Assembly (NCBI GenBank): GCA_030605125.1
Contig: JAUWBD010000015.1
Span: 1 to 42,467, forward strand
Origin: Verrucomicrobiota bacterium
GTDB taxonomy: Bacteria > Verrucomicrobiota > Verrucomicrobiia > Opitutales > Opitutaceae
Length of the DNA: 42,467 bases
Direction of reading: 5' to 3'
Below, piece by piece: positions 993-11,602 of the stretch. Each line of letters opens with the position of its first letter. Positions within the stretch are counted from its first letter, which is position 1. The notes under the pieces were generated by a model. The model had not been told where the DNA came from, did no database searches, and saw only the letters and a list, made by a program, of their open reading frames with translations. Made by a program: the position numbers and the translations under genes.

Positions 993-2219
993 CTACTCCC
1001 GCTCCACCGCGACGGGCTCCGGCGCGGGCGTAGGCGCGTTCGCCACGGGCGTCGGCTTCTTTTCCCGCGCCACCGCGAAGATCGCCGCGCTGATCGCGAG
1101 GAGCACGCCGGAGAAGATCACGAGAGTGAGCCGCTGATCCGATCCCATGACCGCGAGCACCGCCATCAACAGGCCGATCATGCCGACCGAGCTGCCACAG
1201 AGGCGCGCGGGCAAGGTCGAGGGCTGGAGCGGGCGCTCCTCCGCGCGCCGCGTGCGGACCGCCATCAACGCTTCCCATCCGCGGTTCGTCTTTTTGAGGG
1301 TCAGTTCCAGGGCGAGCAGGATGCCGATCGGCACCGCGAGCCCGATCACGATCTCGGTGACGCGCGGGTTGAGGTTGGCCCACTCGTTCACCAGCCCGAG
1401 CACGGGAAGCCCGTCGAGCGGGCCGTCCGCGGCCAGGCCGAACTTGGCCAACACGCCGGCGCCCACGCCGAGGCCGGTGACCGCCCACGCGGAGCCTAGG
1501 CCGATCTTGCGAGAGAACAGACCCCAGACGGTCGGCAGGAGCAGCGGTCCGCTGAGGATGGCGGTCGAGGCCAGCACCCAGCCGGTGTAGCTGCCGAGCA
1601 AGGGGATGAGGATCGCGCCGGCGAGCACCACCAGGCCGAGCAGGATCGTGATGATGCGCCCGGCCATCACGAGTTCACGCTCGGTGGCGTGCGGGCGCCA
1701 GAAGCGCTTGTAAACCTCGCTGGTCAGCGCGCCGGCATAGACGTTGAGCTGGGTCGTCGCCGTGCTCGCGGTCGCCGAGCACATCGCGGCGATCATGAGG
1801 CCCATCATGCCGGCGGGCAGCACCAGTTGGCAGGCGAGGATGTAGGCCTGCTCCGGATTCGCCTCCGGCTGGATGGTGCGAAAGATCATCGGCGGCAGCA
1901 TCCAGAAGATCGGGCAAACGAGCAGCAGCCCGCCGAAAAGGTAGGCGCTTTTGCGGGCGTCCTTGCCGGTCGGCACGCAGAGATGCCGTTGCACGAAGGC
2001 CCAGTCGCCGCCGACCTTGAAGAAGTGGATGATCATCCAGCCGGCGAGGAAGAGCAGGCTATACTCCGCCGCGGCGGGGAAGAAGAAGCCGTCGGGCGTC
2101 GCCTCGACGAAGGCGCCCACGCCGCCGACATGGACGAAGAGCAGCGGCACCACCGCCAACACCGAGACGGTGAGGATGATGAACTGGAGCACGTCCGTCA
2201 TCAGCACCGCCCAGAGGCC
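993..2219 (-). pseudogene. Sodium:solute symporter (SSS family), 5'-truncated
   Basis: The C-terminal part of a sodium/solute symporter with about nine hydrophobic helices. The remaining protein is about 402-404 residues, starting at a GTG at 2207 or an ATG at 2201. Intact SSS proteins usually have 480-600 residues and 13 or more helices. Family similarity starts abruptly at G-L-W-A-V-L-M-T-D-x-L-Q, which normally follows the fifth helix in a G-G-L-x-A-V-x-x-T-D context. Upstream of about 2220 the frame reads unrelated residues and reaches a TGA at 2244-2246. The first four or five helices are therefore gone, including much of the family's sodium and substrate site. The C-terminus is a proline/alanine tail. 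The break coincides with the left edge of the RHS segment. It is most likely non-functional. Confidence 0.75.
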
Positions 2220-2536: not shown

Positions 2537-2560
2537 GACGCAAGTAGGTGCGTCCCTCTT
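2536..2560 (+). terminator. Terminator-like hairpin before the RHS gene cassette
   Basis: A perfect 7-bp stem GGACGCA/TGCGTCC with a 6-nt loop is followed by CTCTTTT. It lies 57 bp before the first gene of the cassette and could stop read-through from the left or act as a leader attenuator. The stem is short, so confidence is moderate. Confidence 0.4.
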
Positions 2561-2616
2561 TTATGTCTGCACGCCGCAGCCGGTGCAATACGCCTCGCCT
2601 GCTACCTGTTACCCCT

Positions 2617-3384
2617 ATGCAAGTTCTCTCATTCCAGTTTTTTTCGGCCTGCGTCGCCTCGCTTATCTTTCTTGCGCCGTCTCTTCACGCACTGGACGCA
2701 ACGACCGCGCTCGAGGTTGCTCCCGAGTTGTCTCGCAAAGTGGTGCATCTCGGCACGCACAAGATCACCTACATCCGCATCACTCCGCCGCAGCTCCCGC
2801 GCATGCCGGTCGCGCCCGTCGTTCCGGCGAGGGAGCCGACTGCGGAGGAACTGGCTGCCGAGGAGGCCTATGCGGCCAAGATTTACGAGCACCTCGGCCT
2901 CACCTGCATGGTTTACGTCGGCACGCCCACGGTCACGGAGCTGACGTGGTGGCACGAGGGGAAGCGCCATCGCGCTTGGTCCAATGCCGACTTCCGCCTC
3001 CTCACGCAGCTCGGCCACCTCGAAACCGAAACCCATGTCTTCTCGTGGTTCTCCTTCGTCTCCGAAGCCGTGGTGGCGGATATTCCCGTCGCCGAGCGGC
3101 CGGCCGAGTTCACGCTTTTCTCCGCCTCGGACACCGCGCCGGAGTATTACTTCGAGGGCACGGAGGCGGACATGATCGCGACCGCCAACACGCTGCTCAG
3201 CCTCGATTACATGCACGCCTACTACGAGCTTCACCGCGAACAGCTCGCTACCGAGCATGCGCAGCGAATGCAGGATGCCGCGCTCCACGAGGCGCGCGGG
3301 GCCGAGCTCGCGAAGAACTCACCCAAACGCCCCGATACCGTGATCCGCTTCTGGAAAGCGCCGGCCGCCGCTCCCGCTCCGTAA
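2617..3384 (+). CDS. Exported protein of unknown function, RHS cassette
   Basis: A 255-residue protein. The ATG at 2617 is chosen because it begins a clear Sec signal peptide (hydrophobic core FFSACVASLIFLAP, likely cleavage after SLHA). The mature part has a proline-rich stretch (about residues 55-70) and an E/A-rich helix. A folded region of aromatic residues follows (V-T-E-L-T-W-W-H-E-G-K-R-H-R-A-W near 110-125). The C-terminus has a long charged helix (Y-Y-E-L-H-R-E-Q-L-A-T-E-H-A-Q-R) and an alanine/proline tail. I do not recognise the family. It is 22 bp ahead of the next gene and in one apparent operon with the RHS gene, so it may serve export, surface anchoring or folding of the RHS protein; that is inference. 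Confidence 0.7.
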   Translation: MQVLSFQFFSACVASLIFLAPSLHALDATTALEVAPELSRKVVHLGTHKITYIRITPPQLPRMPVAPVVPAREPTAEELAAEEAYAAKIYEHLGLTCMVYVGTPTVTELTWWHEGKRHRAWSNADFRLLTQLGHLETETHVFSWFSFVSEAVVADIPVAERPAEFTLFSASDTAPEYYFEGTEADMIATANTLLSLDYMHAYYELHREQLATEHAQRMQDAALHEARGAELAKNSPKRPDTVIRFWKAPAAAPAP

Positions 3385-3406: not shown

Positions 3407-3922
3407 ATGAACCTATCCCGCCTCGCTTTGTTCGCACTGCCCTCGCTGCTTGCTTTCTTGTCATCGACCGCGGCGGATGAACCGCAGCAGACGGGCATCG
3501 CCCACGATTCCTGCACCGGAGCACTTGTGCTCTCTTGGGCCGGCATCCCAGGGCGCACCTACTTCATCCAAGGCTCCTTCGACCTACTCGACCCTTGGCA
3601 CTTCCTGCCGGTGATCGAGTTGGGCTCCGGCGCGTCGCTCGCCTATCACATGCTGCTTGAACCTCCCGCGCCTCGCTTTTTCCTGCGCCTGCGCTACACA
3701 GATCAGCTGCACGGCGGTGACCCCTACGCCTTCGATTTCTCCGGCGGCGGACTACCCGCAGGCTGGGCGCTTGAGCACGGGTTGAACCCCTTTGATCCCG
3801 CCGATGCCGCCAAGCCGGCCGGCAGCGGCCTCACTTGGCTGGAGCTTTACCAGCAATCCCTCGGAGACGGTGCCGATCCCGCCACTACTAACGCCGCCGC
3901 GTTGCTTGTATTCACCCCCTGA
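3407..3922 (+). CDS. Small exported protein with a dockerin/TSP3-like C-terminus
   Basis: A 171-residue protein with a signal peptide (core LALFALPSLLAFLSS, cleavage near TAA). The central region (G-R-T-Y-F-I-Q-G-S-F-D-L-L-D-P-W-H) resembles short beta-sandwich modules common in exported Verrucomicrobia proteins. The C-terminal 50 residues (G-L-P-A-G-W-x-L-x-H-G-L-N-P-F-D-P-x-D-A, then G-x-G-L-T-W-L-E-L-Y-Q-Q-S-L) resemble the 'GDGLPDWWE...GLTNLQEY' calcium-binding type of repeat, with several acidic ligands replaced. It sits 22 bp after the previous gene and 6 bp before the RHS gene, so all are probably co-transcribed. A helper role for the RHS protein is inference. Confidence 0.65.
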   Translation: MNLSRLALFALPSLLAFLSSTAADEPQQTGIAHDSCTGALVLSWAGIPGRTYFIQGSFDLLDPWHFLPVIELGSGASLAYHMLLEPPAPRFFLRLRYTDQLHGGDPYAFDFSGGGLPAGWALEHGLNPFDPADAAKPAGSGLTWLELYQQSLGDGADPATTNAAALLVFTP

Positions 3923-3928
3923 CCGCCA

Positions 3929-6900
3929 ATGTTCATGAATCTCTCTTCTTCGCGCGAAACCGAACGAGCCGGAGCCGGCCGACGAATGGTTGGGCGATGC
4001 CTTGTCGCCAGCCTCGCTTGGCTCGCCCTGTCGGCGTCGGCCTTCGGCGAGTGCGGCAGTTTGGCCGGAGTGGTGAAGACTTGGGCTAGCGTAACCAAGG
4101 AAGGCTCGCTGCTTGGCTTTTCCGGTTATCGCCCCACAGGAAACACCCAGTCGGTTGATGATCCTACCGCGCCGTGGAATGTGGGGCCGGTATGGAAATG
4201 GAAGGTCAAAACGTTGAGCGGGGAAACCCGGCTTTATGAGCATCCGCCGAGCTATGGGGTTTACACTTCGACAAGCTATTCCGGTTACATCTTGATAGAC
4301 GATTCGGGCACAACTAATGAAGCCTCATTTACTGGCTGTGATAGTGTGGGTGGCGCGCCGGACTGCGTTACCTTTCCCAACGAATACTATCCGGAGGTTC
4401 GGCCTTCTGGCATATTTCGACACGTAACTGAGGAAGCCTGCTGGGCGGAGGTGACCGGTCCAGGTTACCGAACGGAATTTGAGCTCACCGCCGCGACGAC
4501 TACCGCCTGTGGCGTCAATCCACACACCAATTGGGACGAGACACAGGGCTCTACGGAGGAACGCCTGTCCGAGCCTGACCGGCCAGAAGACGCTTGGGAA
4601 CGGGCCGGGCCGCCGGTGAAAGGGCACTTTAGGAAGGCGTTTTTGGGGGTCGCGTTAACCACTCCCGAGTCGACCGCTCCTATTTCCCTCGCCCGGCGCG
4701 CCGTCACGGTGACGCTGACCGGTTGTGGCGGCCCCTACAAAATCGTGGCGCCGTATCGAACCGGCAAATACGGCGGCCACACCGCGTTGACCGAGGCGGT
4801 ATACGCCACCAACCCCGAATTTGAGGAGAAACTGGTTCCGGATCTGGAAAACGTCACCTTCGATGAGAACGGCGAATATGCTTTTGAGCTTCCTGTTGAG
4901 GTGAATCGCGTCTCCGAACTCTGGGCGGATAAGATCGAGATGATTCCGTTGGAGGCAAAGCCGCTTGGCAGCGCCCTGTCCTGCACCTCGAGCATGCGTT
5001 TCGTGATCAACCTAGGCGCGGCCGGCGACGGCACCACCGCAGGCATCCTGCGCATCAAGGAAAATGAGCTGGGCGACGCCGCGTTCACGCCGGCGGCGCT
5101 GCAACTTGCCGCGTTCGGCGCAGAGGTGGAGGAGGTGCGCGATTCGTCGGGCTTCCTTCGGCAGGTTAAGGTCGCGGAGGGCCTTTTCGATATCATCACG
5201 CTCTCTGGCGACTCCTACAAAATCGATGTTCGCCTCGCCTCTGATGTTGGCTCGCTTGATTCCGGCACCGGCCTGTTCGCCGTTTCCGGATCGCCGATCG
5301 TCACCTATGCTGTCTCCGAAGCGCCTGGGTCCACCCTCGGTGATCGCCGGCTCATTCTCGCTGAATTGCGCGGCACCAAAACTACCGAGACGATTTTCCG
5401 CCACGCCGGCTCCGTCTGGGAAACCATCGGCGGCAACGGACTGCGTCTCGAGCGACTGACTACGACCACCGATGGCGGCGACCGCATCGAAACCCGTGAA
5501 TACCGTCAGACTGACGATACTTTGGCGTGGAAACAATCTCGCCGCATCCGGCCCTTTCCTTTCGGCGACCAAGATATCGAGTTGATCGAGGGCCAGGGCG
5601 CCGATGCCCGCACCACCAGCTACATCTACTACGACAACCCCGCGACCGACGGCGCCGCCTACGGCAAACTCAAACGTGAAGTCTCACCCTCCGGCCGATG
5701 GACCGAATGGCGCTACGACACCGCTGGCCGCCGCGAGAAGCGCGTGAGCCAGTTCCTCGACACCGCCCCCGGCTCGGCGGACAACCTCAACCGCGTGACC
5801 GAGTGGACCTACTCCACCGTGCCGGACCTCGACGGCGACGATTTGGACGAGGCGCTCGAAACCGAGATCGACACCGTCCTCGGCCAGGAAACCGGCCGCC
5901 GTCATCGCCTCAAGCTCACCGCCCCCGGCGGCGCCGGCCACGCCGCGTGGAGAGAAGAACGCCAGATCGTGACCACCGTCGCCGGAGCGTCGTGGGATGC
6001 CACGACCAACCTCGTGACGATCACCCGACTCGGCCTCGTCGGCCGCCTCAAAGATCGCACGCTCTGGCAACAAGCCCCCGATGGCTTGCTCTCGAGCCTC
6101 GATTTGGAGCCGTTGTCTGGCGGCGGCCGCAAATGGATCGCCCGCTCCGGCATCCTCCATGCCGGCGAGATCCTTGGCCGCAGGGAGGAGATCAGCGAAG
6201 ACGTCTTCGGGCGTGAAACGCTCCGGGAAGTCTATGAGTCTGGCCTCTTGGTTGAGATGGCCCTCGTAGCGACCCGCGATGAGCTGGGCCGCCCCACCGA
6301 AACCGTGTTCCTCGACGGCAGCACCGAACACCGCCAATACGCCTGCTGCGGCCTCTCCCAGTTCCGTGGGCGCGACGGCGTGTTGACGACCTACGAACAC
6401 GACGCGCTTGGCCGCGTCGAGCGCGAGAGCACCGGCGGCATCGCGCTGGTTCACACCCACGACGCGGCCGGCCGCCGCACCAAGACCGTGCGCGTCGGTT
6501 CGGACGATAGTGAAATCACCCTTTTTGAAACCACCTACGACACCTCCGGCCGCTTGGTCGCCGAGACAGATGCCGCCGGCCGGCTTACCGCCCACGTCGA
6601 GCAAATCCTCGGCGACGGGAAAACCGAACGCCGAACCCTCCATCCAGACGGAGAAGAAATCCGCCTCTACCATCCCGACGGCTCCCTCGCCTCCGTGCGC
6701 GGCGACGCCGCCGCATGGCGCGACCATGCCTACGGCGTCGATTCCAACGGCTATTTCGAACAGGAACTTTTTCCTCGCGGCGACGAAGGCGCCTCTCCCG
6801 CCGCGCAATGGGTGAAGCGTTACCGCGACCAGGCCGGGCGTCCTGTGCTTGTGCGCCACGCCGACGGGGCGGAGGAACACAGCGCCTACGACGCCTCCGG

Positions 6901-9900
6901 GCGTCTCGCCTCGCGCACCGATGCGGACGGAGTGCGCACCCTTTTTGCCTCCGGCCGCGAGGCCGGTTCCGCCGGTCGCCTGGAGGAGTGGCAAGTCGTC
7001 GTCGTCGATTTGGCCAGCCCCGGAGTCATCGACTACGCCGCCAGCGGCGCCGGCGCGGACCGGATCAGCCGCACCCGAACCGGCATCGCCCTTCGCGGTT
7101 CACTGCCGGTGTTGCGCAGCATCACCGAGCGGTGGATGGGAGACGGAGACAATCCCGAGGAAATCGCCCGCACCGAAACCACGCCAGACGGACGCCAGTG
7201 CTGGAGCACCCATCGCGGCCAGACCACGCACTTGGAGACTCAATACGACGGCTTGGGCGGCCGCATCGAAACGAGCACCCTGCCCGACGGCACGCGCCTG
7301 ATCAGCACCTACACGGGTGGTCGGCTCCATTCCGCGGAATCGAGGGATGCGGCCGACAACGTCCTTCGCTCCGACACCTACGCCTACGATCCGCACGGTC
7401 GCTTACAGAGCCAGACTCAGGTCGGGGTGGGCACAACCAGCTACACCTACTTTGACGATGGACAGGTCGAAACCGTCACCACTCCAGATCCCGGCACCGG
7501 CGCACAAACCACCAGCTACAGCTACAACAGCCGCGGCTGGCTGGCGACCGTCACGCACCCGGACTCCGCCGAAACTCACACGACATATCACCCCACCGGC
7601 CAGGTGAAACGCACCTGGGGCGCCCGAGCCTACCCCGTTGAATACGCCTACGACGCGCAGGGCCGCATGAAAACCCTGACCACCTGGCAGGACTTTGCCG
7701 GCGAAACCGGTGCGGCCACCACCACCTGGAACTACCACTCCCAGCGCGGCTGGCTCGAGAACAAGCGCCACCACGACAACAATGGCCCGAGCTACACCTA
7801 CACCCCCGCCGGCCGCCTCCACACCCGCACTTGGGCGCGCACTGCCGGCGGTTCGCCCCTCGTCACCACCTACGCCTACACCGACGCCGGCGACCTCGAA
7901 AGTATCACCTATTCTGATACGACGCCCGCCGTCTCCCACACCTACGACCGCGCCGGCCGCCTCCACACCCCCACCGACGCCGCCGGCCTGCTCACCCGCG
8001 CCTACGACCCCGCCAGCGCTCGCTTGGCCGGCGAGGCCTACACCGGCACCGGCCTCCTCTCCGGCCGAGCCATCGCCCGCACTCACGACACGCTCCATCG
8101 CCCCCAATCCCTCGCCACCGATGGCGGCCACGCCCTCGCCTACACCTACGACTCCGCTGGCCGGCTCGACACCGTGACGCAAGGATTCCACCTCGCCAAA
8201 TACGCCTACGCGGTCAACCTTGGCACCGTGGAAGGCGTGACGATCAAGCGCCTCAACGTGGAGCGGGTGAAGCACACGCGCACGACCGACGCCCTCGGCC
8301 GCACCACCTGGGTCCAGTCCGCCTCCAACGACGGTGCCACGATCCACGTCTGGCGCGACTACACCTACAACGCCGCCAACCAGCGCACCGACGTCGAGCT
8401 CGAGGACACCCGCCGCTGGGCCTACGGATACAACGACCTCGGCCAGGTGACCTCCGCCCAAAAGCGCCTCGCCGACGACACCACGCCTCTGCCCGGCTAC
8501 ACCTTCGGCTACGCCTTTGACGACATCGGCAACCGCACCGCGACCACCACCAACGGCCGCGCCGCCAGCTACACGCGCGATGCCGGCTTGCTGAACCAGT
8601 ATATGAGCCGCCAGGTCTCCGGCGCCTTCGACGTGCGCGGCGAGGCCGATCCGCTCGCCACCGTCACCGTCGAGGGCCTCTCCACCACCCGGACCGACCG
8701 CGACTTCTACCGCGAGATCGCGGCCGCCAACACCGGCTCCGCGGTCAACACCACGCTCGCCATCGTGGCGACCTTGGGCGACGACACCGTTACCCAGAAT
8801 CGTCCGGCCTTCCTCCCGCAGACGCCTGAGGCCTTCGCCCACGACGACGACGGCAACCTCACCCAAGACGGCCGCTGGGACTACACGTGGGACGCTGAGA
8901 ACCGCCTGATTGCGATGGAGACTCGCGCTGTCATCGCCGCCGCCTTCCCCGCGCTAAAGCAACGGCTCGAGTTCGCCTACGACGCCCAAGGCCGCCGCAT
9001 CGCCAAGCGCGTCTTCGATTGGGACCCTTCAACTTCATCTTTCGTCTTAATCTCAAAAACGAAGTTTCTGTATGATGGCTGGAACCTCTTGACCGAGCTC
9101 GACGCCCTCAACGGCAACGCCCTTGTCCGCTCCCATGTCTGGGGCTTGGACCTGAGCGGAAGTCAACAAGGCGCCGGCGGCGTCGGCGGCCTACTCTGGA
9201 GCAGCACGCCCACCCACAGCTTTGCCGCGAGCGCGGATGCCAACGGCAACATCGTCGCCTGGATCAACACCGCGACTCTCGCCGTCAGCGGCCGCGCCGA
9301 CTACGGCCCCTTCGGCGAGCGCGTGCAGGCCACCGGCGTCGCCGCCGCGCTACCCTTTGGCTTTTCCACGAAATACACGGACGCCGAAACCGGTCTCTTG
9401 TATTATGGTTTTCGATACAACTCTCCGAGCCTTGGCCGCTGGCTCAGCAGGGACCCCATTGAGGAAGGCGACGGGCCGAACATGTATGCGATGGTTAGGA
9501 ACAACCCGGTTAACCTCTGGGATTACCTCGGCTTGGCTTACGGGCGGAATCTAACGAAGGACGAAGCGGAAGCGCTGGCGTGCGCGATCAATAGTTGGCT
9601 CGTTGAGGCCACGGTCGCCAACGCGCTTTTCCTGTGGGGCAACGACGACAAGTCTCTTACGCTAAGATTCCTGAAGCGCTATATGGCCAAGACAGGCGGC
9701 TTGGTGAATCTCTCGTGGTCTGACATCCGCAACAAAGGCGCGGCGTCGATCAAGGCCGCTAACTTGCAAGCGCCACGCGAAGTGGAGCAGCAAGGCGTAT
9801 GGAGATTGTCGATACGCACGACTGGCGATCTCTCGACCTCCGTAGGCCGGACGATATTGGAGTATGGCAGAGACGCGAACGGCTTTTTTGGCGGCTTTGA

Positions 9901-10117
9901 TGACCGTTACACATTTTTGGACACGCGGCCCGACGAGGGCGTCGATGTCACGTTTCCTCGCCTGCAAGTGACGGGACGCGAGGTGAAATGTTGCTGGATG
10001 GGCGGCAACAACATCTCCGATGAATGGATGGCGGATCTGGAGCGTTTTGGCTTCGCAAAGTCCTTCGATGTGAAATCCCGGTGGCGGGTGAAACCCTTCT
10101 CTGAGGAGGGCTACTAA
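3929..10117 (+). CDS. Secreted RHS/YD-repeat protein with variable C-terminal (putative toxin) domain
   Basis: A 2062-residue protein. A second ATG at 3935 is also possible. After a basic start comes a hydrophobic export segment (core L-V-A-S-L-A-W-L-A-L-S-A-S-A, cleavage near AFG). Residues of about 40-480 are a lower-GC N-terminal domain. From about 500 to 1800 there are many YD-type repeats (Y-D-x-x-G-R, Y-T-Y-D-x-x-G-R-L) that build an RHS shell. The RHS core ends with G-R-W-L-S-R-D-P-I-E-E and the pre-toxin motif P-V-N-L-W-D-Y-L-G-L near residue 1868. The remaining 194 residues differ in composition from the repeats and match no toxin family I can name. In polymorphic toxins the region after such a motif is the released toxin. 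The stop codon overlaps the start of a small membrane protein. The gene sits in a segment that appears inserted between two broken genes. Confidence 0.85.
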   Translation: MFMNLSSSRETERAGAGRRMVGRCLVASLAWLALSASAFGECGSLAGVVKTWASVTKEGSLLGFSGYRPTGNTQSVDDPTAPWNVGPVWKWKVKTLSGETRLYEHPPSYGVYTSTSYSGYILIDDSGTTNEASFTGCDSVGGAPDCVTFPNEYYPEVRPSGIFRHVTEEACWAEVTGPGYRTEFELTAATTTACGVNPHTNWDETQGSTEERLSEPDRPEDAWERAGPPVKGHFRKAFLGVALTTPESTAPISLARRAVTVTLTGCGGPYKIVAPYRTGKYGGHTALTEAVYATNPEFEEKLVPDLENVTFDENGEYAFELPVEVNRVSELWADKIEMIPLEAKPLGSALSCTSSMRFVINLGAAGDGTTAGILRIKENELGDAAFTPAALQLAAFGAEVEEVRDSSGFLRQVKVAEGLFDIITLSGDSYKIDVRLASDVGSLDSGTGLFAVSGSPIVTYAVSEAPGSTLGDRRLILAELRGTKTTETIFRHAGSVWETIGGNGLRLERLTTTTDGGDRIETREYRQTDDTLAWKQSRRIRPFPFGDQDIELIEGQGADARTTSYIYYDNPATDGAAYGKLKREVSPSGRWTEWRYDTAGRREKRVSQFLDTAPGSADNLNRVTEWTYSTVPDLDGDDLDEALETEIDTVLGQETGRRHRLKLTAPGGAGHAAWREERQIVTTVAGASWDATTNLVTITRLGLVGRLKDRTLWQQAPDGLLSSLDLEPLSGGGRKWIARSGILHAGEILGRREEISEDVFGRETLREVYESGLLVEMALVATRDELGRPTETVFLDGSTEHRQYACCGLSQFRGRDGVLTTYEHDALGRVERESTGGIALVHTHDAAGRRTKTVRVGSDDSEITLFETTYDTSGRLVAETDAAGRLTAHVEQILGDGKTERRTLHPDGEEIRLYHPDGSLASVRGDAAAWRDHAYGVDSNGYFEQELFPRGDEGASPAAQWVKRYRDQAGRPVLVRHADGAEEHSAYDASGRLASRTDADGVRTLFASGREAGSAGRLEEWQVVVVDLASPGVIDYAASGAGADRISRTRTGIALRGSLPVLRSITERWMGDGDNPEEIARTETTPDGRQCWSTHRGQTTHLETQYDGLGGRIETSTLPDGTRLISTYTGGRLHSAESRDAADNVLRSDTYAYDPHGRLQSQTQVGVGTTSYTYFDDGQVETVTTPDPGTGAQTTSYSYNSRGWLATVTHPDSAETHTTYHPTGQVKRTWGARAYPVEYAYDAQGRMKTLTTWQDFAGETGAATTTWNYHSQRGWLENKRHHDNNGPSYTYTPAGRLHTRTWARTAGGSPLVTTYAYTDAGDLESITYSDTTPAVSHTYDRAGRLHTPTDAAGLLTRAYDPASARLAGEAYTGTGLLSGRAIARTHDTLHRPQSLATDGGHALAYTYDSAGRLDTVTQGFHLAKYAYAVNLGTVEGVTIKRLNVERVKHTRTTDALGRTTWVQSASNDGATIHVWRDYTYNAANQRTDVELEDTRRWAYGYNDLGQVTSAQKRLADDTTPLPGYTFGYAFDDIGNRTATTTNGRAASYTRDAGLLNQYMSRQVSGAFDVRGEADPLATVTVEGLSTTRTDRDFYREIAAANTGSAVNTTLAIVATLGDDTVTQNRPAFLPQTPEAFAHDDDGNLTQDGRWDYTWDAENRLIAMETRAVIAAAFPALKQRLEFAYDAQGRRIAKRVFDWDPSTSSFVLISKTKFLYDGWNLLTELDALNGNALVRSHVWGLDLSGSQQGAGGVGGLLWSSTPTHSFAASADANGNIVAWINTATLAVSGRADYGPFGERVQATGVAAALPFGFSTKYTDAETGLLYYGFRYNSPSLGRWLSRDPIEEGDGPNMYAMVRNNPVNLWDYLGLAYGRNLTKDEAEALACAINSWLVEATVANALFLWGNDDKSLTLRFLKRYMAKTGGLVNLSWSDIRNKGAASIKAANLQAPREVEQQGVWRLSIRTTGDLSTSVGRTILEYGRDANGFFGGFDDRYTFLDTRPDEGVDVTFPRLQVTGREVKCCWMGGNNISDEWMADLERFGFAKSFDVKSRWRVKPFSEEGY

Positions 10118-10467
10118 TGGGAGCGCCGCTTCTTGTTCTCGGGTTGGTTTTGCTTGTGCTGATTGAACTCAAGGTGCGCCGTGCGGCCTGGCGAGCTGTT
10201 GGCCTGGCCTTGGTGGCTCTGCTGCTGGTGGCGGCCTCTGCCAATGTCGGGATAGATATCGGACGCGCGCTTCAATCGAACGGGATCAATCCACATCTAA
10301 GCGCGCTGTTTAGCAGGCTCGGGCGTCTCGCCGAAGCAAATGAGGCGGAGGCTTTGAGGAGAGATGTCCTTCGTTTCCAAGCAGCGATGCCGAGTGTTTT
10401 GACCGATGAGGAAGCACTCGCGCAGCTTGTGAACGAGATCGAGAACGCGCCGCCCGCGACGCGCTAA
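10117..10467 (+). CDS. Small two-helix membrane protein, candidate immunity protein
   Basis: A 116-residue protein. Its ATG shares one base with the TAA of the RHS gene (TAATG), an arrangement typical of translational coupling. There are two hydrophobic helices at about residues 3-19 and 27-47, separated by a strongly basic turn (K-V-R-R-A-A-W-R). By the positive-inside rule the turn is cytoplasmic, and the 65-residue C-terminal helical domain, rich in acidic residues, is periplasmic. No family is recognised. The position straight after an RHS toxin-like C-terminus is the classic place for a cognate immunity gene. The topology would suit neutralising a toxin that acts at the inner membrane or periplasm. 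Function is inferred from position and topology only. Confidence 0.65.
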   Translation: MGAPLLVLGLVLLVLIELKVRRAAWRAVGLALVALLLVAASANVGIDIGRALQSNGINPHLSALFSRLGRLAEANEAEALRRDVLRFQAAMPSVLTDEEALAQLVNEIENAPPATR

Positions 10468-10578
10468 GTCAATCCGCCCAAGCGGCACACGTCGCGCCAG
10501 GCGCAGCGCCTGTCACGCCGTCTGCGTGCGCCTCCGCTTGCGCTCCGTCCGCTGGAGTGCAACCCCGCCGGACCGGTC

Positions 10579-10600: not shown

Positions 10601-11602
10601 ATGTGGCGCAACGACGTCCTCGCCCGGAGCCCCGACCTGCTCTTCGTCGAGTTTGCCGTGAACGACACCGGCGCCGCCCCCGAGCGCATCCGCGCCGCGA
10701 TGGAGGGCATCGTCCTCCAGACCCGCCGCGCCAATCCCGCCACCGAGCTCTGCTTCGTTTACACGCTCAGCCAAAGCCAGCTCTCCGACTACCAGGCCGG
10801 CCGCCTCGCCGTCACCGCGCGAGCGATGGACGAGGTCGCCGCGCACCACGGCATCCCCTCGGTCGCCGTGGGCTTTGAGGTCGTGCGCCAGCTCGCCGAG
10901 GGCCGTCTCGTGTTTCGCGGTCCCTCCACCGGCCTCGACGCCGAAGGTCGCGACCCCGAGGGCCGCCTGGTGCTCACCGGCGATGGCATCCACCCGCTCG
11001 CCGGCGGCCACCGGCTCTACTTCACCGTCATCGAGCGTGCCCTGCGCGCATTCTTCGCCGCCCCGCCCGCCTCGTCCGCGCCCGGCGCGCTCCCGCCTCC
11101 GCTCACGCCCGAGCCCTGGGACCGCGCCACCATCCTGCCCGTCGCCGACACCGCCCGCACCGGGGAATGGATCCCGCTCCCCGCCGAGGATCGCCGCGCC
11201 CGCGTCCACCCCGCCCCGATCATGCCGGTCATCTGGCTCGCGCCCGAGGCCGGCGCCTCCCTCGCTTTCGAATTCACCGGCACCCGCTTCGGGCTCGTGG
11301 GGCTCAAGGGCCCCGACTGCGGCCAGTTCCGAGTCTTCGTCAACGACCTGCCGCCCGTCGCCGCCACCTTCTTCGACGCGCATTCGGTCGAGAACCGCTA
11401 CCACCTCGCCGCCTGGCACTACCCGCAGGCGCTCCCTCACGGCGCGCACCGCGTCCGTATCGAATTGATCGATACGCCGATCGACAAGGCCGCCATCCTC
11501 GCGCGCCGCGGCTACACGCCGCGCGATCCCTCCGCCTTCGCCCCCCACCGCCTCTACCTCGGCGGCGTGCTTCTCCCCTCCGGCCTCTCCCCCCTCCCAT
11601 GA
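10601..11602 (+). pseudogene. SGNH/GDSL-type esterase, 5'-truncated
   Basis: The first visible residues, L-A-R-S-P-D-L-L-F-V-E-F-A-V-N-D, belong to the middle of the SGNH fold (block III, with its conserved Asn). The final block is intact (G-D-G-I-H-P-L-A-G-G, with Asp and His of the catalytic set). The N-terminal 80-100 residues with the GDS serine block are missing. A TAG lies in frame immediately before the first ATG, so no upstream start rescues it. A C-terminal jelly-roll-like domain (about residues 165-333) remains. Without the nucleophile the protein should be inactive. Intact relatives act on acetylated or otherwise esterified sugars. Its stop overlaps the start of the GH35 gene (ATGA), so translation of this remnant may still drive beta-galactosidase synthesis. 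Confidence 0.75.

What the first reader, a model, noticed from the sequence alone, without database searches (positions are those of the whole stretch)
9534..10117. Unrecognised 194-residue C-terminal domain after the RHS core: candidate new toxin
The repeat shell ends in a P-x4-D-x-x-G-L motif (P-V-N-L-W-D-Y-L-G-L). After it the sequence changes character and carries motifs I cannot place: S-W-S-D-I-R-N-K-G, D-D-R-Y-T-F-L-D-T-R-P and V-K-C-C-W-M-G-G-N-N. In polymorphic RHS proteins this position holds the toxin. The D-R-Y-x-F stretch loosely recalls toxins acting on cell-wall precursors, but that is only a hint. The protein carries its own export signal, so delivery may not need type VI secretion.
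Basis: partly seen in the sequence, partly recalled or inferred. Interest (0 to 1): 0.7.

Follow-up and report, generated by a model that had tools for sequence, protein, structure and literature searches.

The report
Orphan toxin tip on secreted RHS
A giant secreted RHS protein of an Opitutaceae-like bacterium ends in a swappable domain without known relatives and with its own small membrane gene behind it, most likely a weapon against other bacteria and its antidote, perhaps a very distant cousin of the cell-wall toxin colicin M.

Summary
Searches of the order (273 genomes), phylum (387), plasmids, phages and species contigs found no relative. The end behaves as an exchangeable toxin cassette: 183 distinct ends behind this shell type form 156 clusters; some are known toxins; the four closest shells, 62-69% identical, carry unrelated ends; GC is lower in the end than in the shell in 171 of 177. 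A 116-aa ORF with two hydrophobic segments overlaps the stop codon: probable immunity gene. Six RHS ends from the phylum form a colicin-M-like branch (profile to colicin M, E 6e-11) that lacks the catalytic HR. The domain shares ordered motifs with it, but weakly: rank 1-4 of 180 in seven rankings, far below true members; it fails the Pfam model and the signature, has no histidine, and AlphaFold2 failed. Verdict: toxin-immunity module, very likely; envelope action, likely; colicin-M descent, plausible, unproven.

The parts
3929..10117 (+). Secreted RHS/YD-repeat protein, 2062 aa (shell plus C-terminal domain)
   Evidence: PF05593 and TIGR01643 repeats
3929..4045 (+). Signal-peptide-like N terminus (residues 1-39, hydrophobic core about 24-39)
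   Evidence: hydropathy only; no signal-peptide predictor was available
9302..9535 (+). RHS-associated core, end of the shell (...DYLGL)
   Evidence: TIGR03696
9533..10114 (+). C-terminal domain, 194 aa, probable toxin module (stop codon 10115-10117)
   Evidence: unlike the ends on the closest shells; composition
9668..9727 (+). FLKRYMAKTGGLVNLSWSDI: possible counterpart of the first motif of the colicin-M-like RHS branch (colicin M from about residue 131)
   Evidence: weak
9839..9868 (+). SVGRTILEYG: possible counterpart of colicin M LGNITLK
   Evidence: weak
9899..9931 (+). DDRYTFLDTRP: possible counterpart of colicin M DDKYDFNASTHR; Asp and Tyr kept, Thr in place of Asp229, no His
10117..10467 (+). 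116-aa ORF overlapping the RHS stop codon (TAATG), two hydrophobic segments then a tail of 70 residues; probable immunity gene

Best explanation
Residues 1869-2062 are the exchangeable toxin tip of a polymorphic RHS weapon, and ORF 10117-10467 is its immunity gene; tip and immunity gene arrived together as one cassette behind an older shell (inferred from composition and from comparison of shells and ends). The protein is exported through its N-terminal signal, the RHS shell presents or encloses the tip, and the tip acts in the envelope of a competing bacterium, where a membrane-anchored immunity protein can meet it (inferred). Most likely enzyme: a strongly diverged colicin-M-fold domain that attacks a lipid-linked cell-wall precursor, with an altered active site that keeps the Asp and Tyr but lacks the catalytic His (speculative). 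My own estimates: toxin-immunity module 0.9; acts in the envelope 0.65; colicin-M descent 0.4; still hydrolysing a lipid-linked precursor 0.25. Nothing biochemical was shown.
For: Same shell, different ends: 107 distinct ends plus 76 = 183 ends, 156 clusters at BLAST E 1e-3, 136 singletons; the nearest shell is 68.6% identical over 299 aa and its end is unrelated. Known toxin families among the 103 ends scanned (E up to 0.01): phospholipases A2, M91 peptidase, WHH nuclease, colicin DNase, Ntox43, Ntox10, Tle1-like, Tox-REase-7, Fic. GC of the end is below that of its shell in 171 of 177 complete ends. The next ORF overlaps the stop. Among 101 next ORFs behind 104 complete ends of the first set, 68 have a hydrophobic segment, against 41 of 210 and 26 of 112 ORFs found at control sites by the same rule (Fisher p 3e-16 and 1e-10). 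P0002 by the positive-inside rule has its tail outside the cytoplasm (loop +4, tail -3). Colicin M link: the L256 end is over the Pfam Colicin_M cut-off (30.1 against 27) and matches colicin M 3da3 at E 8e-8; five other members without L256 still hit colicin M at 7e-6, all six at 6e-11. P0003 against the six-member HMM: rank 1 or 2 of 180 non-members by alignment method, 0 of 2000 shuffles as high; global hhalign rank 1 of 180; an ordered-motif pattern hits 6 of 6 members and P0003, 0 of 179 other ends, 3 of 20,000 shuffles (pattern written after seeing P0003); adding P0003 costs the profile 2.6 bits to colicin M, adding L117 or L123 7.3 bits (the two controls were longer, untrimmed ends).
Against: P0003 scores 4-10 bits in leave-one-out HMMs where the left-out true members score 20-63. 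Compared singly with the six members its phmmer E-values for one comparison are 0.004 to 0.13, and phmmer against all 183 ends puts none of the members held there near the top. hhalign to a 5-member family has probability 5% and aligns only 29 residues; local hhalign rank is 4 of 180; the global alignment does not put DDRYTF on the family's D-x-[YFW]-D-F, and 1 of 200 shuffles scored as high. Unrelated ends equal or beat it in single tests: L066 and L063, L120, L081 and L117, L117, L228 and L102. No Pfam Colicin_M match, no histidine, Thr where Asp229 should be; Ala at Asp229 or His235 leaves colicin M under 2% activity and no toxicity (PMC8469651, passage). AlphaFold2 gave mean pLDDT 32.5 and 36.8, so the fold is untested. 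P0002 has no cysteine, unlike Cmi. The control also shows that finding an ORF behind a stop (210 of 247 and 112 of 312 control sites) or an overlap (102 of 210, 39 of 112) is not special, and a GC dip also lies near the start of the gene.
Confidence: 0.4

Rival explanations
1. A toxin of a new, unrelated fold that acts in the envelope (for example on the membrane or another lipid), with ORF 10117-10467 as immunity protein; the colicin M likeness is coincidence.
For: No credible relative in any search; weak colicin M statistics; envelope-type next ORF. At least 76 of the 103 ends scanned match no Pfam family at E 0.01, so unknown tips are common here.
Against: Motifs in the same order as in the colicin-M-like branch (post hoc) and rank 1-4 of 180 in seven rankings.
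Confidence: 0.32
2. A cytoplasm-acting enzyme toxin (nuclease, NADase or the like) whose immunity protein happens to be a membrane protein, blocking entry rather than the enzyme.
For: Several ends on the same shell type are of cytoplasmic toxin families such as nucleases and Fic.
Against: No toxin model of any kind matches; no histidine, which argues against HNH/WHH and HKD chemistry (inference).
Confidence: 0.13
3. A decayed, catalytically dead colicin-M-like tip: the cassette is a relic or now binds a target without cutting it.
For: Asp229 and His235 counterparts missing; the literature describes ColM domains with altered motifs, HxYDx5FK and IxYNx5LK, that are thought to be inactive (PMC5821083 and PMC8469651, passages).
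Against: The reading frame is intact over 194 codons and the overlapping ORF is intact; none of six branch members has HR at that place either, so its loss need not mean decay, although each of those has 1-5 histidines elsewhere and P0003 has none.
Confidence: 0.1
4. Not a toxin: a structural or adhesive C-terminal domain of the RHS protein.
For: Toxicity is unproven.
Against: Ends differ behind similar shells, several belong to known toxin families, and composition breaks at the junction.
Confidence: 0.05

Closest known systems
RHS polymorphic toxins (Zhang et al. 2012, PMC3482391; abstract and passages seen)
   Same: YD repeats, RHS core, variable C-terminal tip after the core, small gene directly behind; the paper's tables list verrucomicrobia for several of its toxin families
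   Different: The tip matches no family of the libraries searched; 68 of 101 next genes here have a hydrophobic segment and 15 a lipobox-like pattern, whereas that paper names one lipoprotein immunity family as exceptional
Colicin M catalytic domain (Pfam PF14859; PMC8469651 and PMC5821083, passages seen)
   Same: Possibly the order of motifs: first helix motif, LGxxTL-like stretch, DDxYxF; a small membrane-linked partner (Cmi 117 aa, P0002 116 aa)
   Different: No Pfam match, DxYDx5HR not met, no histidine; P0002 has two hydrophobic segments and no cysteine while Cmi has one anchor and needs two cysteines; delivery on an RHS shell
RHS-linked colicin-M-like ends found here (L212, L224, L256, L262, L263, L283)
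   Same: Same shell type and position, membrane- or lipoprotein-like next gene (by eye), HR absent at the expected place in 6 of 6
   Different: They match each other and colicin M clearly; P0003 does so only marginally
DUF3289-DUF943 type VI effector pair, a colicin M homologue (PMC11148199; abstract and passages seen)
   Same: Colicin-M-like toxin recognised only by structure, paired with an immunity protein, toxic in the periplasm
   Different: P0003 matches no Pfam family, so none of that name; no VipB was found in this genome
HKD phospholipase D / cardiolipin synthase
   Same: WMGGNNISDEW resembles WVGGHNVGDEY or like stretches in four chance-level hits
   Different: P0003 has no histidine, so no HxKx4D motif; hit E-values 0.04-0.4

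Membership tests
RHS polymorphic toxin | RHS/YD repeats and RHS-associated core | tested here: met
   PF05593 E 4e-20; TIGR01643; TIGR03696 79.7 bits against cut-off 32.5
RHS polymorphic toxin | Variable C-terminal end behind a conserved shell | tested here: met
   183 ends, 156 clusters; nearest shells carry unrelated ends
RHS polymorphic toxin | Immunity gene directly downstream | tested here: inconclusive
   Overlapping ORF of 116 aa with two hydrophobic segments; position fits, protection not testable, no credible homologue
RHS polymorphic toxin | Tip is toxic and neutralised by the immunity protein | not testable with these tools
   Needs expression experiments
RHS polymorphic toxin | Export signal | tested here: inconclusive
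   Hydrophobic stretch 24-39 after basic residues; hydropathy only
Colicin M (PF14859) | Match to the Pfam model | tested here: not met
   No hit for P0003 whole or in two pieces
Colicin M (PF14859) | Active-site signature DxYDx5HR (Asp226, Tyr228, Asp229, His235, Arg236) | tested here: not met
   DRYTFLDTRPD: Asp and Tyr kept, Thr for Asp229, no His in 194 aa; residues from PMC8469651
Colicin M (PF14859) | Sequence kinship to colicin-M-like RHS ends | tested here: inconclusive
   Rank 1-4 of 180 in seven rankings; 0 of 2000 and 1 of 200 shuffles as high; far below true members
Colicin M (PF14859) | Colicin M fold | tested here: inconclusive
   AlphaFold2 mean pLDDT 32.5 and 36.8; no fold search run on such models
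Colicin M (PF14859) | Membrane-associated immunity partner | tested here: inconclusive
   Two hydrophobic segments, tail predicted outside; role as immunity protein unproven
Colicin M (PF14859) | Hydrolysis of lipid II | not testable with these tools
   Needs an enzyme assay
Type VI secreted Rhs effector | Type VI sheath in the genome | tested here: not met
   No VipB (PF05943) at E 0.01 in the own draft genome, 95.7% complete; control rang in E. coli
HKD phospholipase D | HxKx4D | tested here: not met
   No histidine in P0003

The most novel reading that the evidence does not exclude
A histidine-free colicin-M-fold toxin carried on a Sec-exported RHS shell: together with six related RHS ends without the HR pair it would define an RHS branch of the lipid II toxins with a different active site (Asp, an aromatic residue and in several a Ser/Thr-Arg/Lys pair instead of His-Arg), protected by varied membrane or lipoprotein immunity proteins.
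Probability: 0.28. Interest if true: 0.65.

Novelty: new member of a known kind. Interest (0 to 1): 0.45.

Why it matters
It adds an orphan toxin-immunity pair to an arsenal for which my paper searches found little: RHS proteins of Opitutaceae and relatives whose ends differ almost every time (156 clusters in 183 ends) and whose next genes mostly carry a hydrophobic segment, which suggests that many of these weapons are met in the envelope. If the colicin M link is right, the branch would show that lipid II toxins can do without the catalytic HR, and comparison could then test the colicin M mechanism, which a 2021 review calls unknown (PMC8469651, passage).

Tried and rejected
Direct homologue hunts for P0003 found only matches that I take for chance: order (273 genomes, own included, best other E 0.013), phylum (387 genomes, best other E 0.0026), genome contigs by 8-residue patterns, viral contigs (19), plasmids (12), phages (best E 5). 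I read 18 of the 36 loci these two genome searches fetched besides our own (named by eye: antisense of rpoB, cardiolipin synthases, a branching enzyme, a repeat-rich surface protein). In some searches I translated loci with minus-strand matches on the wrong strand; one search repeats six of them on the right strand and adds three.

P0002 homologues: 273 genomes, best other E 0.0015, taken as chance for a hydrophobic protein, not followed. Bridging through similar next ORFs failed.

L123 looked similar by eye; it found one weak match in 387 genomes, an autotransporter-like repeat protein, and 11 plasmid records at E 0.2 or worse.

Of 20 matches of L224 in the phylum I read five and kept two, L262 and L263, which follow RHS cores in long frames.

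Phospholipase D likeness of WMGGNNISDEW: rejected, no histidine. Plasmid searches with L224, L212 and L263 found nothing; viral contigs gave one short RHS match and none for L256.

AlphaFold2 twice (and 97/107): confidence too low, so no fold search was run. The Pfam Colicin_M search of the own genome says nothing because it rang in no control either.

Dropped before counts: cores whose match ended before query residue 60, ends under 15 aa and repeats of the same first 60 or 40 residues. The first set comes from 106 loci, the second from 66 of 80 loci. Of 183 ends 5 were open at a contig edge; of 178 complete ones 1 was not over 60 aa, leaving 177. One complete end with an X was left out of A1 (103 of 104). 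In the rank tests the members L212, L224, L256 were removed (180 of 183 left), P0003 too (179).
Full report
WHAT IS THERE. The ORF at 3929-10117(+) encodes 2062 aa with RHS/YD repeats and an RHS-associated core at residues 1792-1869. The last 194 residues match nothing in Pfam, NCBIfam, PHROGs, PADLOC or the PDB. The stated start is off by one base. GC drops to 0.57-0.61 and GC skew turns positive over 9300-10499, covering this end and the next ORF, between stretches of 0.60-0.73 and 0.66-0.77; a similar dip lies near the start of the gene (4050-4499, same call), so the dip alone is not proof of import. The next ORF, 10117-10467, overlaps the stop codon (TAATG) and encodes 116 aa with two hydrophobic segments (residues 2-20 and 28-46), a loop of charge +4 and a tail of charge -3, i.e. 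a tail predicted outside the cytoplasm. The N terminus of the RHS protein looks like a signal peptide by hydropathy.

IT IS AN EXCHANGEABLE END. The core was found in 57 of 120 genomes of the family. From 30 loci of that search, stretches of the own genome and 80 stretches asked for by place I extracted 107 distinct ends, 104 complete; a genome-contig scan, of which the best 80 of 330 relatives are kept, gave 76 more, 74 complete. The 183 ends fall into 156 clusters, 136 of them singletons, at BLAST E 1e-3. The nearest shells over the last 300 residues are 68.6% (L181), 65.8% (L182), 67.0% (L183, 215 aa) and 62.4% (L190) identical to ours, and their ends do not resemble P0003. The own genome has two more core ends, on other contigs, with different tips. 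Of 177 complete ends over 60 aa, 171 have lower GC than their shell, mean difference -0.084. Among the 103 ends scanned with Pfam at E up to 0.01, known toxin families appear in a minority: phospholipases A2, M91 peptidase, WHH nuclease, colicin-type DNase, Ntox43, Ntox10, Tle1-like, Tox-REase-7 and Fic; at least 76 match nothing. So the position holds toxins, and this end is one of many that no library knows.

THE GENE BEHIND. Of 104 complete ends in the first set, 101 have an ORF of at least 55 aa beginning near the stop, 61 overlapping it, 68 with a hydrophobic 19-residue segment. A control with the same rule at out-of-frame stops in the shell and at stops on the other strand gave ORFs at 210 of 247 and 112 of 312 sites, overlapping in 102 and 39, hydrophobic in 41 and 26. 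So ORF presence or overlap alone is not special in such DNA, but the hydrophobic share is (68 of 101 against 41 of 210; Fisher p 3e-16). Many of these weapons therefore seem to be met in the envelope. This is an inference from hydropathy, not from a topology predictor.

NO DIRECT RELATIVE. P0003 has no credible homologue in 273 genomes of the order, 387 of the phylum, genome contigs and viral contigs by peptide patterns, plasmids or phages. phmmer against the other 182 ends gives best E 0.25. These searches reach close relatives best; a large protein database was not available.

A COLICIN-M-LIKE BRANCH OF RHS ENDS. Looking for D-x-Y-x-[FWL] among the new ends led me to L224 and L256. L256 passes the Pfam Colicin_M cut-off, matches 444 plasmid records at best E 4e-5, the 30 listed being annotated as colicin M or colicin, and colicin M in the PDB at E 8e-8. 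L262 and L263 came from 387 phylum genomes with L224 as query, L212 from the collected ends, L283 from 164 genomes with the profile. Five of them without L256 still hit colicin M at E 7e-6, the first motif aligning with colicin M ALAHYLWGNG; all six give 6e-11. None of the six has DxYDx5HR: after the x5 stand SR, TR, PS, SK, SK and SD. Only L256 passes Pfam; L224 matches at E 0.09, L212, L262, L263 and L283 not at all. Their next genes look like membrane or lipoproteins by eye. A review reports that Ala at Asp226, Tyr228, Asp229, His235 or Arg236 leaves under 2% of colicin M activity (PMC8469651, passages).

DOES P0003 BELONG? For: it carries the branch's motifs in order, FLKRYMAKTGGLVNLS (9668-), SVGRTILEYG (9839-), DDRYTF (9899-) and DTRP (9920-); a pattern for the first three and a final F-x-[VI] hits 6 of 6 members, P0003, 0 of 179 other ends and 3 of 20,000 shuffles, but I wrote the pattern knowing P0003. 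With the six-member HMM it is first or second of 180 non-members and 0 of 2000 shuffles reach its score; the matching part lies within residues 38-109, before the motif by which L224 and L256 were picked. Global hhalign ranks it first of 180 (16.1 against 10.0 for the next). Adding it to the profile costs 2.6 bits to colicin M, adding L117 or L123 costs 7.3 (only two controls, and longer ones). Against: leave-one-out members score 20-63 bits, P0003 4-10; singly compared with the six members it gets E 0.004 (L263) to 0.13 for one comparison; local hhalign puts it fourth of 180; hhalign probability is 5%; one of 200 shuffles beat it in global mode, and that alignment does not pair DDRYTF with the family motif; in the conserved-column count it ties for second (18 of 27) behind unrelated L081 (21); with the first four-member HMM two unrelated ends ranked above it; L120 beats it in two of the HMM versions. 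One calibration cuts both ways: L256, a proven colicin M relative, left out of the family scores 14.4 in global hhalign, P0003 14.3. It lacks any histidine and has Thr at the Asp229 place. AlphaFold2 with one and with four sequences failed (mean pLDDT 32.5 and 36.8). I give descent from the colicin M fold 0.4.

MECHANISM. Shown by sequence: shell, junction, orphan end, overlapping small gene, change of composition. Inferred: acquisition as a cassette, export by the signal, presentation by the shell, action in the envelope of a rival, neutralisation by the membrane protein. Speculative: hydrolysis of a lipid-linked precursor. Type VI delivery is unlikely because no VipB was found in the 95.7% complete draft genome.

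LITERATURE. PMC3482391 (abstract and passages) describes the RHS toxin logic and lists verrucomicrobia for several families; PMC5821083 (passages) and PMC8469651 (passages) describe ColM motifs, deviant motifs and membrane immunity proteins; PMC11148199 (abstract and passages) proposes DUF3289 as a colicin M homologue with DUF943 as immunity; PMC12419801 (passages) unifies a further toxin domain with the colicin M fold; PMC12057145 (passages) mentions Rhs-toxin-like domains in a giant protein of a PVC lineage. Searches for Opitutaceae with RHS repeat and toxin (0 papers), Verrucomicrobi with polymorphic toxin, Rhs and immunity (5 papers), Verrucomicrobi with Rhs, contact-dependent and toxin (8 papers) and colicin M with Rhs or CDI terms listed no title or abstract start that describes these ends; I read passages of six papers only, and closed journals are not in the library.

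VERDICT. A probable orphan toxin tip with its immunity gene in a known kind of system; the possible histidine-free colicin M branch is the interesting part, and the colicin M kinship is solid only for the six relatives, not for the window's own domain.

Noticed in passing
window 993-2207 (-) and 10601-11602 (+): Both genes flanking the RHS operon seem to lack their 5' parts: a sodium:solute symporter ORF matches Pfam SSF only from position 146, a GDSL hydrolase ORF only from position 56. The RHS segment may have replaced the starts of two genes.
   Followed up: partly
window 2548-3384 (+) and 3407-3922 (+): Two ORFs with signal-like N termini (by eye) lie directly upstream of the RHS gene (6-base gap before the ATG at 3929), without Pfam matches; possible export or surface partners of the shell.
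   Followed up: partly
L212, L224, L256, L262, L263, L283: An RHS-linked colicin-M-like branch of which Pfam recognises one of six, with the catalytic HR absent at the expected place in 6 of 6.
   Followed up: yes
ends: About two thirds of the ORFs behind these RHS ends (68 of 101) carry a hydrophobic segment and 15 a lipobox-like pattern, which points to envelope-located immunity.
   Followed up: partly
L181 1656-2177 (+): The end on the closest shell has FWRWFFGSSRQWVRI and later KSDFNPGG, faintly like the colicin-M-like branch by eye, but fits no family.
   Followed up: no
genome G275: One relative genome holds 14 RHS core sites, four of them on one contig within about 13 kb, perhaps an array of ends.
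   Followed up: no
window 9989-10027: CCWMGGNNISDEW resembles the cardiolipin synthase stretch WVGGHNVGDEY in four chance-level hits without the HKD residues.
   Followed up: yes
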